Below are positions 26,121 through 31,866 of a stretch of 64,000 bases of DNA, piece by piece. This stretch comes from Shewanella sp. (GTDB taxonomy: Bacteria; Pseudomonadota; Gammaproteobacteria; Enterobacterales; Shewanellaceae). The notes beneath the pieces are model-generated. The model had not been told where the DNA came from and did no database searches. It saw nothing but the letters and a program-made list of their open reading frames with translations. Made by a program: the position numbers and the translations under genes. The stretch lies in contig JAOIUG010000006.1 of assembly GCA_028223395.1 (NCBI GenBank), forward strand, positions 1 to 64,000, given 5' to 3'. The first letter of the stretch is position 1; each line of letters starts with the position of its first letter.

Positions 26121-26163
26121 TAAACTCTGACATTATATGGAAACCAAATAATGTCAGAGTTTA
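26121..26163 (-). terminator. Putative terminator of the RT/nitrilase operon
   Basis: Perfect 16-bp inverted repeat TAAACTCTGACATTAT ... ATAATGTCAGAGTTTA, 9 nt downstream of the last ORF. Confidence 0.65.
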
Positions 26164-26172
26164 ACTATAGAA

Positions 26173-26628
26173 TTATGAATTTTTAACTTTTTTAATCAAC
26201 GAGTCTAAATCTTCAAACCAATGCTTACTATTGGCCGTCTTTGATTTTTGTATATGAAACTTATGCTTATTCAGTTGTGACGCTATAGTATCTTTCCACT
26301 TTTCATCTTTTGGTTTTGCTTCAAGTATTTGTTCGAATGCAAACAACATGTTTGAAAAAAACCAAGTGTATTGTGCATACCTTTCATCTTGGGCTGATGA
26401 CGGCCTGTACTCACCACTCGCCAAATCAGGGTTGTCCATACACAGAACTAAATATTGTTGGTATATATTATGAGCTTGGGCTGTAGCTGTAGCGCTACGC
26501 CCAACTTGAACTTGATAATAAGCCGTACAAAGGGCGCCAATAGCAACAACTAAGCTCAACATTGGCATCCAGCTATCCCACGTTTTAATATCAAGCAACA
26601 CTGAAAACCCAGTTTCAAAACATGTCAT
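26173..26628 (-). CDS. Small membrane-anchored protein encoded with the RT-nitrilase (candidate DRT1 accessory protein)
   Basis: 151 aa; one predicted TM helix (SWMPMLSLVVAIGALCTAYYQVQVG) then soluble helical tail; 12-nt gap to the upstream ORF. Confidence 0.7.
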   Translation of the reverse strand: MTCFETGFSVLLDIKTWDSWMPMLSLVVAIGALCTAYYQVQVGRSATATAQAHNIYQQYLVLCMDNPDLASGEYRPSSAQDERYAQYTWFFSNMLFAFEQILEAKPKDEKWKDTIASQLNKHKFHIQKSKTANSKHWFEDLDSLIKKVKNS

Positions 26629-26640
26629 TTATAAAGTCTC

Positions 26641-28881
26641 TTATCTTGGAGGTAATATTTTTCTAGAAGCAGATATCTTAAACCCTTCAGGAACTGGTTT
26701 GAAAGGATCTGAATCTTTTGGCCAACGTTTAGCTCTACTTTGAAATTCTCTTAACTTCTTAATATCGAGTTTAACAGTTACAAAGAAATCGTTTTCGCCA
26801 CCTTTAATTCGAGCAAGATCTCGAAGAAAGCTTTGTTTCGCTGGAGAACGAACTCTACTATCACCATAATTTCTATTGTTGACGAAAATAGTATATGCAT
26901 GAATATCAAGTACCGCGGACTCAACTAATGTTGAGAATGTCTCAAGGTCTTTATTCCATGATAAGACAGCTAGTGCGTCAATATTGCCTTGAAATGCCAC
27001 TCTTGCTTTACTATTTTGTAATTCAGAACAAACCATAACGCCAAAGTGGAAACCATTATGATCGTAAACAGGCTTAACCCACTTAGAGCTCTTTTGAGGT
27101 GCCCAACTTTTTCCAAAGAACTTCGTTAGGTTTTCCTCTTCAGAAGGTGCTGGCTCGAGCTTTTGTTGCCATATACGTGTCCAATGTGGGTATCCTAATC
27201 TATCATCTTTTAAGACAAGGCAAGCTTCACTTACCAAGTTGTCGTTTTTAAAATGACGATATTCAGTACCTGCTATTAAGTTAATACCTACTGCAGTTAG
27301 ACGATCAGCAATACTATCAACCCATTTTAAAGGAAGTGATAACTCAGGCATGAAAAGGTAATCAGGTCGGGGTTTTGATGAAATAACCCCATTAATTAAT
27401 TCGCAAATTTGCTTATATCGTTTAAGTGAGTGATCTGGGTTGTCACATGCTGTTTTCTCCCAGCAACTCTCTTTGGTTGATAGACTGGTTACAGCCACAA
27501 TAACGCTATCAGTCTTCTTCATTCCAATTTTAATTTTAGAAGAAGGTTTTGTTTTATTGATTATTGGCTCTAGGAGGTTTGGTGAAACCCATGAGCCACG
27601 TAAAACAGAAATATATCGAGCTAAGCTTCTCATAGGGATTGAGTTTTTCTTAGCATTTTTACCTATGCATTCTGGCAGTAAATGAACGATTTCTGATGAC
27701 GTATAAGGCCTAGTAGGAAACACGTATGGAAGAATATTTTCATAGACCAATTTTCCACGTTTGTTTAACCTAGACTTTTGTGTCTTTGCTAAGAATTTAA
27801 TTAAGTGAACAGTATTTAAAAAATTGCTGCCATATAATATTTTTATTAATTCCTTTTGTGTGGTTATATTTTCATCATTACTATCTAAATGTCCGAATAT
27901 ATTTTGGACTAACTTGTAAGGAGTTTTAGCAAGATCGCTTTTTTGTAGCTTTGGTGCAATTTCGTAAAAACCATTATCTAAATAGCTGGAGAAAAACTCA
28001 TCGTTTGCACTAAAACGTTGTAATAACGTTTCCATAAACGTGTGAGCAAGCTTTTTAACTGTAATATTAGCATATTCCGATTTTAACTCGGTAGGATATG
28101 CTTTAGCTGCACAATCAATAAATGAATGAGCTAGTGACTTGTAAAGTTCATCCCATACATTGCTGGTTAGCTCACAATTCTCTATGCCATTAATAACTCC
28201 CTTATGGCCTTCGCTTTTTAGGTGCTCGATAAGTTCATCTAAAGCATCAAAAGTTACGGTTACTATTTTATTAGCGTCATCCCAATCTTTTAAAGAAATA
28301 GCTAAGCTAAGAAGTCTAGGCAGGTAAGTATAGTGGTTAAGGATTTTTTCTGAGCATAGGATATGATCATACGCAAATTGATAGAAGCCTTTACGCTCTT
28401 TTTGCCAGCCTGATGCTGGAATGTCTCTGGCAAGGGTTTCGACTTGGCGTAACTGAATTGACCAGCTCAACCTGTGTAAACTTAATCCATCAGCTCGCCT
28501 AAGTGTGTCTGCACTTTCGCTAGAGGATTCTGCTGCAATCAATACTTTTGCTGCTGTTGATTTCTCAAATTGATCTATTGAAGGCATTAACCTGTGTTCA
28601 CTAGACAATTTGTGCATCTCTTGTTCAATACTGTCAATAAGGTCAAAACCAGCTTCACCCTCTAAGATGAATAGTTTCTGTTTAGTTGATTGAAATTGAA
28701 TTTTTGTATCTTTAAAGTAGTATTTTGGAAAATCAATCGACCAAATCTCAGCGTTGTTCTCATCAGCCTTTAATACAAATTTATCAGTGTTTCTGAATCT
28801 AAACTTTAATCGCTCCGAAATAAAATTCATAAATGATTTTGTATCATTTATCTTGCCACCATCATGAAGAACTAGGAACAT
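26641..28881 (-). CDS. C-terminal part of split UG1/DRT1-like RT-nitrilase: rest of RT/thumb and helical region plus C-N hydrolase (nitrilase) domain
   Basis: Starts MFLVLHDGGKI, the expected continuation of an RT YVDDM motif; C-terminal nitrilase triad candidates PELSLP (Glu), QQKLEP (Lys), VMVCSEL (Cys). Confidence 0.8.
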   Translation of the reverse strand: MFLVLHDGGKINDTKSFMNFISERLKFRFRNTDKFVLKADENNAEIWSIDFPKYYFKDTKIQFQSTKQKLFILEGEAGFDLIDSIEQEMHKLSSEHRLMPSIDQFEKSTAAKVLIAAESSSESADTLRRADGLSLHRLSWSIQLRQVETLARDIPASGWQKERKGFYQFAYDHILCSEKILNHYTYLPRLLSLAISLKDWDDANKIVTVTFDALDELIEHLKSEGHKGVINGIENCELTSNVWDELYKSLAHSFIDCAAKAYPTELKSEYANITVKKLAHTFMETLLQRFSANDEFFSSYLDNGFYEIAPKLQKSDLAKTPYKLVQNIFGHLDSNDENITTQKELIKILYGSNFLNTVHLIKFLAKTQKSRLNKRGKLVYENILPYVFPTRPYTSSEIVHLLPECIGKNAKKNSIPMRSLARYISVLRGSWVSPNLLEPIINKTKPSSKIKIGMKKTDSVIVAVTSLSTKESCWEKTACDNPDHSLKRYKQICELINGVISSKPRPDYLFMPELSLPLKWVDSIADRLTAVGINLIAGTEYRHFKNDNLVSEACLVLKDDRLGYPHWTRIWQQKLEPAPSEEENLTKFFGKSWAPQKSSKWVKPVYDHNGFHFGVMVCSELQNSKARVAFQGNIDALAVLSWNKDLETFSTLVESAVLDIHAYTIFVNNRNYGDSRVRSPAKQSFLRDLARIKGGENDFFVTVKLDIKKLREFQSRAKRWPKDSDPFKPVPEGFKISASRKILPPR

Positions 28882-28915
28882 ATCATCAACATATCATCAA
28901 CATATCATCAACATA
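28877..28915. repeat. 11-bp tandem repeat (AACATATCATC)x3 + AACATA inside the RT catalytic motif
   Basis: Read directly: AACATATCATCAACATATCATCAACATATCATCAACATA; on the minus strand TATGTTGATGA encodes Y-V-D-D. Confidence 0.97.
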
Positions 28916-29860
28916 TCGACCATAATGAACAGGTGTCAATTCTTCTCTAATTAATTGGTCCAATTTCCAAAGTAACACATTTGAAATTATTCTTGAAACC
29001 GTTAACCCTATAACTAATCCACCGGGTATGGCTGTATCAGTATTAGTTAAGCCTTTAGCAAATTTGGTGGCGTTAGTCCCCCAGTTTTTTAGTAGCTTTA
29101 CAATTTTCTTAGTGAAATCTTGTTCGTCTTCAGATAGTTTTTTATCTTTATCTAAACCAATGGTGTCTTGGAAATCCTGGCTTGTTAAGAAGCTAGGGTC
29201 GATAGTGTGATAGTAACTTTTTAAATCTAATGAAACCGCGACTACAGCTCTTTTGTTTTCAAGCTCACTTCTGATAGCTGAAAGCCCATTATTTCTCCAT
29301 TGCTGATAAGGTTGATAATATGGTTTAAAAGAGCCTACAGATGTTAAATTGAAAGGTCTCTCAATATTTTTATTATTGCTTTTTAATCGCTTAAGTCGTG
29401 CTCCATAAACATCACCTTCATTCAAACATGAATCAAATTTATGACCAACCATATTGATCCAAAGTGCTGATAGAATATGTGTCTTTACGGGGAAATTACC
29501 TACAATTCTAAACTCTGGGATTATAGTATTTGATCCGCAGAAATGTTTAAAAGCTCTCTTTTTATTGGAAAAATGAGTGTGCCCATTTTTGCTATTTTCT
29601 TTGGGTTTGCTAGATAGTTTTTTAGGTACGACTCTAAAGTGGCCAAGATAGCTGCTGATGCTTTTAGGGCCATTATGCTCTTTCCATTCTTCAAGGAGCT
29701 TATCTAAATTGGTTAAAAGATCTTCTTCGAATTCAGCAAAGTCGATCGCTGAAGGAAAGCCATCTTCAATAAAACAATCTGCTTTTGCCTTGCGATAAGC
29801 AACGATTAAATCTATTTGAGTTAGGTTATCCCAACCTTCAAATTGCGCTGTATAACTCAT
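28886..29860 (-). CDS. N-terminal part of split UG1/DRT1-like reverse transcriptase
   Basis: RT motifs VAVSLDLKSYYHTIDP (A), IPGGLVIGLTVSRIISNVLLWKLD (B), VHYGRYVDDM (C); ends four codons after YVDDM at a repeat-induced stop; SD AAGGA before ATG. Confidence 0.85.
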   Translation of the reverse strand: MSYTAQFEGWDNLTQIDLIVAYRKAKADCFIEDGFPSAIDFAEFEEDLLTNLDKLLEEWKEHNGPKSISSYLGHFRVVPKKLSSKPKENSKNGHTHFSNKKRAFKHFCGSNTIIPEFRIVGNFPVKTHILSALWINMVGHKFDSCLNEGDVYGARLKRLKSNNKNIERPFNLTSVGSFKPYYQPYQQWRNNGLSAIRSELENKRAVVAVSLDLKSYYHTIDPSFLTSQDFQDTIGLDKDKKLSEDEQDFTKKIVKLLKNWGTNATKFAKGLTNTDTAIPGGLVIGLTVSRIISNVLLWKLDQLIREELTPVHYGRYVDDMLMIC

Positions 29861-29875: not shown

Positions 29876-30223
29876 TTAAACAGCCTGATCGACGATGGCG
29901 TTTGTGAGGTGGAGTTGGGTTGTTTGCGCGTCGCTTAAACGGGTGCAATCTAGACCTTGCTGCAATCCTTTATCTAAACTGTGCTTGTTAGCCTTAGCTT
30001 CAATAACAGCAAGCGGCATGCTGGGTTTATGGTAGAGCACAATATCAGCTGACTTGACCGTTTTACGCACGCCTAATTGGCCACGTACAATGACTTTACC
30101 GTCACGCAGCTTTACCTCTTGGCGAATTTGCGCCATATCATCCCAACCCGCACTTTTAATCGCTGGCATGATGAATTTGGTGATGATATCCGTTTCAGTT
30201 AGCTTTGCTTTATTGATGGCCAT
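29876..30223 (-). pseudogene. HsdR N-terminal domain remnant (type I restriction endonuclease)
   Basis: [18 protein letters not shown] ... [38 protein letters not shown] (D...ExK nuclease core), then an abrupt end at 115 aa with no helicase domain. Confidence 0.7.
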
Positions 30224-30316: not shown

Positions 30317-30515
30317 TTTTGCTCTAAACTGGTGAAATAAACCTGAATGTTGATAGGGTCAACAGATATGGCTCAGCCGTTAAAATGCCACAAGATTTAG
30401 CTTGGATGGTTGAAGGTTTTTGGAACGTATGAAAACTGCGGCTTTACTCATATTTTTAATGGATATGACTGTATGGTTTTTTAGTGCGTGTAACCATGCG
30501 TGTAACATATAAACA

Positions 30516-30549
30516 AAAACGGGCTTTCCATTGCTGGAAAGCCCGTTTT
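30516..30549 (-). terminator. Terminator of dusB-fis operon
   Basis: Perfect 15-bp stem AAAACGGGCTTTCCA - TTGC - TGGAAAGCCCGTTTT. Confidence 0.85.
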
Positions 30550-30574
30550 CTTACAGTCATTTAAGAATTGCTTC

Positions 30575-31866
<1,292 letters not shown>

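What the first reader, a model, noticed from the sequence alone, without database searches (positions are those of the whole stretch)
28877..28915. An 11-bp tandem repeat inside the YVDD catalytic motif splits an RT-nitrilase gene: candidate slippage ON/OFF switch
Seen directly: on the minus strand the RT gene reads ...GGT CGA [TATGTTGATGA]x3 TATGTT CCT AGT TCT..., i.e. 3.5 copies of an 11-bp unit whose first copy encodes Tyr-Val-Asp-Asp. As sequenced, frame 1 reads YVDDMLMIC-stop (ORF 28886-29860) and the rest is in another frame (ORF 26641-28881, starting MFLVLHDGG). Deleting exactly two units (22 bp) gives ...VHYGRYVDDMFLVLHDGG..., one open frame of about 1065 aa with the hydrophobic residues expected after an RT motif C. 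By hand translation, two units also hit a stop (...ATA TGT TCC TAG), and in-frame four units stop at the same TGA, so only the one-unit allele makes the fusion. The inferred one-unit sequence TATGTTGATGATATGTT already has a 6-bp direct repeat (TATGTT) at 11-bp spacing, so the codons for Y-V-D-D-M-F are themselves prone to duplication. Inference: reversible silencing (phase variation) of a possibly costly defence enzyme, by a repeat placed on its active-site codons. A one-off inactivating mutation or an assembly artefact are the alternatives.
Basis: partly seen in the sequence, partly recalled or inferred. Interest (0 to 1): 0.92.

Follow-up and report, generated by a model that had tools for sequence, protein, structure and literature searches.

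The report
Phage-defence gene broken by short repeat
A bacterial anti-phage enzyme gene (a reverse transcriptase fused to a nitrilase) is split in two because 11 bases over its catalytic motif were copied in tandem twice; this is most likely a recent knock-out that could revert, and nothing yet shows that it is a working on/off switch.

Summary
On the minus strand at 28877-28917 there are 3.73 perfect copies of an 11-bp unit on the YVDD codons of an RT gene, splitting a UG5/DRT5-type RT-nitrilase into ORFs 28886-29860 and 26641-28881. Only the one-unit form would encode a single 1065-aa protein; zero units and two to seven units all truncate it at 321-325 aa. No homologue examined has more than one unit: 18 relatives from other genomes and 252 E. 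coli genomes. The one-unit form carries an 8-bp direct repeat at 11-bp spacing, longer than in any relative (2-6 bp), which explains the expansion as microhomology-mediated tandem duplication. Both halves keep 130 of 132 residues that are invariant in 15 homologues, so the break is recent.

Phase variation is possible but unproven: the ON form has no tandem array, no other alleles are known, and no other frame-breaking array lies inside an evident gene in 262 kb of this genome. The operon carries a second lesion. A relative has hsdR-hsdM-hsdS-DRT5-drt1b; here hsdRMS is deleted between 8-bp repeats, leaving an HsdR'-HsdS' hybrid. The same junction arose independently in another species whose DRT1 is intact. 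Best reading: recent, potentially revertible loss of function.

The parts
28877..28917 (-). perfect 11-bp tandem array, 3.73 copies (GA + 3x TATGTTGATGA + TATGTT)
   Evidence: unique in the own genome
28904..28915 (-). RT motif C codons Tyr-Val-Asp-Asp in the frame of the upstream ORF
   Evidence: array starts in codon phase 0 at gene nt 946; aligned with YRYVDD of DRT1 (PDB 9yfd)
28886..29860 (-). 5' fragment, 324 aa: RT fingers and palm up to motif C, then MLMIC-stop
   Evidence: PADLOC RT_UG5-nitrilase PDLC03780 profile 9-286, E=3.1e-102
26641..28881 (-). 3' fragment, 746 aa: rest of RT plus nitrilase domain (Glu513, Lys574, Cys618 of this ORF are invariant in homologues)
   Evidence: PDLC03780 profile 283-901, E=7.6e-192; invariance; Cys matches DRT1 Cys1116 region
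26173..26628 (-). drt1b, small predicted membrane protein of DRT systems, 151 aa, intact
   Evidence: PDLC03821 Drt1b/RTasTM, E=4e-57, full length
29876..30223 (-). 115-aa hybrid ORF: HsdR residues 1 to about 97 fused in frame to the last about 19 residues of HsdS; remnant of a deleted type I R-M operon
29936..29943 (-). deletion junction CCCGTTTA, 8-bp microhomology present in both hsdR and hsdS of G042
   Evidence: (L074 2272-2279 and 7820-7827)
30575..30880 (-). fis, the host gene beside which the operon lies
26121..26163 (-). inverted repeat just after drt1b (arms 20 nt, 95% complementary), terminator candidate

Best explanation
The locus is a UG5 (DRT5-large type) RT-nitrilase plus drt1b defence operon that has recently lost function. 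A tandem duplication, followed by one further copy gain or a single two-unit event, occurred between the two copies of an 8-bp direct repeat (GATATGTT, 11 bp apart) created by the codons around Tyr-Val-Asp-Asp-Met-Phe. The +22-bp change shifts the frame inside the second strand of the motif C hairpin, so the RT palm is cut and the nitrilase is separated from it. The allele could revert in principle (exact loss of two units, guided by 19 bp of homology), but only as a mechanical by-product of the duplication; there is no sign that selection maintains it as a switch. Shown: the array, the frames, the single-unit state of every relative examined, the otherwise intact residues, the deletion of hsdRMS from the same operon. 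Inferred: the order of events, loss of enzyme function and defence, the possibility of reversion.
For: Array and ORFs. Both halves match one profile end to end with no gap between them, and the profile search of the own genome reports the gene as two pieces. All 18 relatives read at this site carry one unit, although their exact repeat at spacing 11 is only 2-6 bp against 8 bp here. 253 E. coli places in 252 genomes carry the motif segment uninterrupted (252 at >=99% identity, one at 97.6%), and in 252 of 253 E. coli genomes most of the gene is covered; the other is broken by an IS element. 130 of 132 residues invariant in 15 homologues are kept, the two changes being I to M and L to I, and 3.2 kb have no other stop or frameshift, so the break is young. 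In a model of the intact G042 homologue, motif C is strand 310-314, turn, strand 317-323, with local pLDDT about 67-84 in a globally poor model; the frame breaks in or just after that second strand. For the relative DRT1, mutating either RT aspartates D324/D325 or nitrilase C1116 abolishes immunity (PMC13275509). Short in-gene duplications that knock genes out reversibly are documented in pneumococcal capsule genes (Waite 2001, 2003, cited in PMC4243769) and fission yeast (PMC13207564).
Against: No reads, no second isolate of the species and no functional test. Direct repeats of at least 8 bp at spacing 9-20 are common (25 in the window, 80 in a 198-kb sample), so microhomology alone does not explain why this one expanded. 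Three units imply two gains or one double gain, which could also mean the array is actively changing length.
Confidence: 0.72

Rival explanations
1. True phase variation: the population switches the DRT5 gene between one unit (ON) and two or more units (OFF) often enough for selection to use it, silencing a costly abortive-infection enzyme when phages are absent.
For: Only one unit is ON. With three units present, loss of two units is guided by 19 bp and loss of one by 30 bp of homology, so OFF to ON is plausible. Pneumococcal capsule genes show high-frequency phase variation by spontaneous sequence duplication (Waite titles). The gene is otherwise intact, as expected for a revertible allele. 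Phase variation of other defence enzymes (type I and III R-M) is known.
Against: No multi-unit allele in 18 relatives or 252 E. coli genomes. Microhomology is not conserved (2-6 bp elsewhere). The ON allele has no tandem tract, so ON to OFF needs a rare founding duplication. No other frame-breaking array inside an evident gene in 262 kb of the own genome. The DRT1 authors report no growth cost of DRT1 without phage, which weakens the supposed benefit of OFF.
Confidence: 0.14
2. Split but functional: translation re-initiates at the ATG 4 nt after the TGA (TGA TGAT ATG), or frameshifts, giving two chains or a fused product that still works.
For: Stop and next in-frame ATG are 4 nt apart; the 5' piece keeps YVDD plus a hydrophobic tail and the 3' piece starts MFLVLHD, so both halves carry part of the hairpin.
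Against: No Shine-Dalgarno-like sequence before that ATG; no homologue is split there. The one relative with an interruption (G1126) has it between the RT and nitrilase domains. RT-dead DRT1 is not protective.
Confidence: 0.05
3. Assembly or amplification artefact: the cell has one unit.
For: Fragmentary 52.6%-complete genome; the array is in a critical codon and all relatives have one unit.
Against: A 41-bp array is shorter than ordinary reads, and assemblers tend to collapse rather than expand such arrays (general knowledge). The copies are perfect, and other arrays of 7-20 bp units were assembled in the same genome.
Confidence: 0.06
4. Decay driven by loss of a partner (a cause for the knock-out, compatible with the best explanation): after hsdRMS was deleted from the operon the orphan RT-nitrilase became useless or harmful and was inactivated.
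For: hsdRMS-DRT-drt1b is the intact arrangement in G042 (DRT5) and G056 (DRT1), with hsdRMS-DRT1 in G015 and G107; the window lost hsdRMS.
Against: G123 has the same hsdRMS deletion but an intact 1225-aa DRT1 and drt1b; E. coli homologues stand without hsd genes. The order of the two lesions is unknown.
Confidence: 0.15

Closest known systems
Spontaneous sequence duplications in pneumococcal capsule genes (cap3A, cap8E, tts), Waite et al. 2001 and 2003 (known here through PMC4243769)
   Same: Short tandem duplication inside an ORF inactivates an enzyme gene and can revert by exact loss of the copy
   Different: There, switching was observed experimentally; here only one allele is seen, with two extra copies, in a defence gene
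Microhomology-mediated tandem duplications (MTD), e.g. fission yeast ssp1 (Dan et al. 2021, described in PMC13207564)
   Same: Direct repeat of a few bases at both ends of the duplicated segment, frame disruption, possible stepwise expansion
   Different: Bacterium; three copies; no frequency data
Simple-sequence-repeat contingency loci (phase-variable type I and III R-M genes and others, review PMC11868660)
   Same: Repeat number sets the reading frame of a gene, including defence genes
   Different: Those keep a repeat tract in ON and OFF states; here the ON form has no tandem repeat and all multi-unit forms are OFF
DRT1 (UG1 RT-nitrilase), structure 9yfd, PMC13275509; DRT5S/L in the same paper
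   Same: RT plus C-terminal nitrilase, YVDD motif, drt1b partner; the window gene is UG5 (DRT5-large type)
   Different: UG5 is a separate family within class 3; the window copy is broken

Membership tests
UG5 RT-nitrilase (DRT5-large type) | Full-length match to the UG5-nitrilase profile | tested here: met
   PDLC03780 positions 9-286 and 283-901 of 907 matched by the two fragments
UG5 RT-nitrilase (DRT5-large type) | RT catalytic aspartates (motif A, YxDD) and nitrilase Glu-Lys-Cys present | tested here: met
   D212, D318, D319 in the 5' ORF and E513, K574, C618 in the 3' ORF, all invariant in 15 homologues; assignment to motifs by position and from knowledge of the families
UG5 RT-nitrilase (DRT5-large type) | RT and nitrilase in one continuous open frame | tested here: not met
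   Frame broken at 28886-28888; the family is met at sequence level only, as a disrupted gene
UG5 RT-nitrilase (DRT5-large type) | Protein-primed DNA synthesis and phage defence | not testable with these tools
   Protein-primed synthesis reported for DRT5S/L and defence for DRT1 in PMC13275509
Phase-variable (contingency) locus | Repeat number changes the reading frame | tested here: met
Phase-variable (contingency) locus | Repeat tract kept in the ON state | tested here: not met
   The one-unit allele is 8 bp + 3 bp + 8 bp, not a tandem array
Phase-variable (contingency) locus | More than one allele in related strains or in the population | tested here: inconclusive
   One unit in 18 relatives and 252 E. 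coli genomes; no other strain of this species and no reads available
Phase-variable (contingency) locus | High reversible switching rate | not testable with these tools
   Needs a fluctuation assay or deep sequencing
Microhomology-mediated tandem duplication | Direct repeat of a few bases flanking the duplicated unit in the pre-duplication allele | tested here: met
   8-bp GATATGTT at spacing 11 in the inferred one-unit allele
Microhomology-mediated tandem duplication | Pre-duplication arrangement seen in relatives | tested here: met
   All relatives have the one-unit arrangement, for example L029 TATGTTGATGATATGTTT; no very close relative is held (best about 53% protein identity)

The most novel reading that the evidence does not exclude
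A defence-associated RT is genuinely phase-variable by gain and loss of an 11-bp unit that lies on its own catalytic codons, so that the YVDD-Met-Phe coding sequence of some RTs is itself the switch.
Probability: 0.12. Interest if true: 0.75.

Novelty: new member of a known kind. Interest (0 to 1): 0.36.

Why it matters
If it is only a recent knock-out, it shows how easily the catalytic motif of such RTs can be hit when codons Tyr-Val-Asp-Asp-Met create a direct repeat, and it documents the recent loss of a DRT system. If it is a switch, it would be the first phase-variable DRT that I know of. Independently, the comparison shows RT-nitrilase genes, DRT1 or DRT5 interchangeably, as the last genes of one type I R-M operon in this genus, and recurrent deletion of hsdRMS at the same microhomology with the DRT genes kept. 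That raises the testable question of whether the two defences work together.

Tried and rejected
Scans of viral contigs for relatives, for an 11-bp duplication in other RT motifs and for the exact one-unit allele found nothing usable. Phage records: no relative. A first conservation script missed several homologues through a bad motif expression and was replaced. The structure model of the intact homologue was poor overall (mean pLDDT 51.5) and was used only for the local motif C hairpin; no fold search was made with it. RNA folding of the array region gave z = -1.76, not notable. Natural two-ORF encoding at this point was considered and rejected: none found; G1126 has an interruption at the domain boundary instead. 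Guard-type toxicity after hsdRMS loss was considered and weakened by G123.

Full report
What is there. On the minus strand the RT gene reads GGT CGA [TATGTTGATGA]x3 TATGTT CCT AGT. TRF and an exact scan give 41 bp, 28877-28917, period 11, 3.73 copies, no mismatch. The 39-bp string occurs once in the own assembly. As sequenced, the upstream frame gives 324 aa ending RYVDDMLMIC-stop (28886-29860) and the next frame gives 746 aa starting MFLVLHDGG (26641-28881). In a script that only varied the unit number, one unit gives a 1065-aa frame; zero units gives 321 aa, two units 325 aa and three to seven units 324 aa.

More than chance. Eight Markov simulations of the window gave at most 21 bp and 2.33 copies for arrays of period 7-15. 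In 262 kb of the own genome (window plus 198 kb sampled), other perfect arrays of three or about three copies with period at least 7 exist, but they lie between genes or at gene ends, or have a period that is a multiple of three (for example a 9-bp unit in a slyD-like gene); none other breaks the frame of an evident gene. The genome thus shows no general habit of frame-breaking arrays in genes, as far as sampled.

What the gene is. Both fragments match PADLOC RT_UG5-nitrilase end to end (profile 9-286 and 283-901 of 907), and the next gene, 26173-26628, is drt1b (E=4e-57). The intact E. coli relative aligns weakly with DRT1 (PDB 9yfd) over the nitrilase end, at DRT1 Cys1116, and in a sub-threshold stretch over YRYVDD. 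In DRT1, D324N/D325N or C1116A abolishes immunity, and DRT5S and DRT5L also make DNA without template (PMC13275509). The break therefore falls on residues whose equivalents are essential in a relative. That the window allele is inactive is an inference from this.

Relatives. Intact UG5-nitrilase genes were found in genome collections, plasmids and E. coli. All 18 read at the motif have one unit, and their exact repeat at spacing 11 is 2-6 bp. In E. coli 253 of 5426 genomes have the gene; the 42-nt motif segment is uninterrupted in 252 genomes, and one genome has the gene broken by an IS element. One other relative, G1126, has an in-frame stop between RT and nitrilase, a different lesion. Against 15 full-length homologues the window fragments keep 130 of 132 invariant residues; the changes are I to M and L to I. 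Neutral drift for long would have altered more, so the frame break is recent.

How it arose. The codons CGA TAT GTT GAT GAT ATG TTC contain GATATGTT twice, 11 bp apart. Slippage or template switching between the two copies adds one 11-bp unit; once two units exist the homology is longer and further gains and losses are easier. Three units need two gains or one double gain. Loss of two units (19 bp of homology) would restore the frame; loss of one (30 bp) would not. This is the pattern called microhomology-mediated tandem duplication in yeast (PMC13207564) and is like the reversible duplications in pneumococcal capsule genes (Waite 2001, 2003, cited in PMC4243769). The rate arguments are inference; nothing was measured.

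Is it a switch? Against: no second allele, no conservation of the microhomology, no tandem tract in the ON form, no similar arrays in other evident genes of the sampled genome, and for DRT1 no growth cost without phage. For: the gene is otherwise intact, and the array is perfect and could revert. The data cannot exclude a switch because only one assembly of the species is held; I give it about 0.14.

Wider anatomy. The 115-aa ORF 29876-30223 is not simply a truncated HsdR. Its first about 97 residues are HsdR (88.5% identical to HsdR of G056 over 1-96) and its last about 19 are the C terminus of HsdS. In G042 of the same genus the operon is hsdR-hsdM-hsdS-DRT5-drt1b and CCCGTTTA occurs in hsdR at L074:2272 and in hsdS at L074:7820; the window has a single copy at 29936-29943, so 5.5 kb (in G042 coordinates) was deleted between 8-bp repeats, in frame. 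G123 has the same junction before an intact DRT1 and drt1b. In a tree of the 291-bp hsdR part, G123 groups with G035 and G042 (G123 with G035 98/90) and the window lies in another group (95/91), so the deletion arose at least twice. G056, G015 and G107 have hsdRMS followed by DRT1. So DRT1 and DRT5 genes replace one another at the end of one type I R-M operon. The order of the two lesions in the window is unknown, and G123 shows that losing hsdRMS does not force loss of the DRT gene.

Verdict. Observation confirmed; interpretation partly supported. Best explanation: a recent, mechanically revertible knock-out of a DRT5-type RT-nitrilase by short tandem duplication at its catalytic codons, in an operon that also lost its R-M genes. 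Reads over the array are the decisive test.

Noticed in passing
window 29876-30223; L074 2272-2279 and 7820-7827; L088 10338-10688: In-frame HsdR'-HsdS' hybrid ORF left by deletion of hsdRMS at an 8-bp microhomology (CCCGTTTA, codons for Ala-Arg-Leu in both genes); the same junction arose independently in another species of the genus (G123), each time keeping the downstream RT-nitrilase and drt1b.
   Followed up: yes
L077 4203-18838; L074 4598-11617; L089; L090: RT-nitrilase genes (DRT1 or DRT5) sit directly after hsdS in the same type I R-M family in several species of this genus, mostly followed by drt1b: exchangeable RT cassettes in one R-M operon.
   Followed up: partly
window 30499-30589; L072 14821-14910; L073 13686-13764; L077 18753-18838: About 80-90 bp of the 3' end of fis recurs roughly 4-35 kb away in many genomes of the genus, with an integrase gene next to the copy in G056: the fis 3' end looks like an island integration site. 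The window has no second copy.
   Followed up: partly
L076 591-3629 (G1126): A UG5 RT-nitrilase relative interrupted by an in-frame stop between the RT and nitrilase parts.
   Followed up: partly
E. coli NZ_AP022287.1 4058441-4061264: The one E. coli copy of the UG5 gene of 253 that is disrupted carries an ISKpn26-type insertion; only 51% of the gene is covered.
   Followed up: no
window 26641-29860: G+C of the RT-nitrilase region is 35.6% and of drt1b 37.5%, against 43.8% for the window and 46.3% for the HsdR-HsdS hybrid, consistent with separate acquisition of the RT cassette.
   Followed up: no
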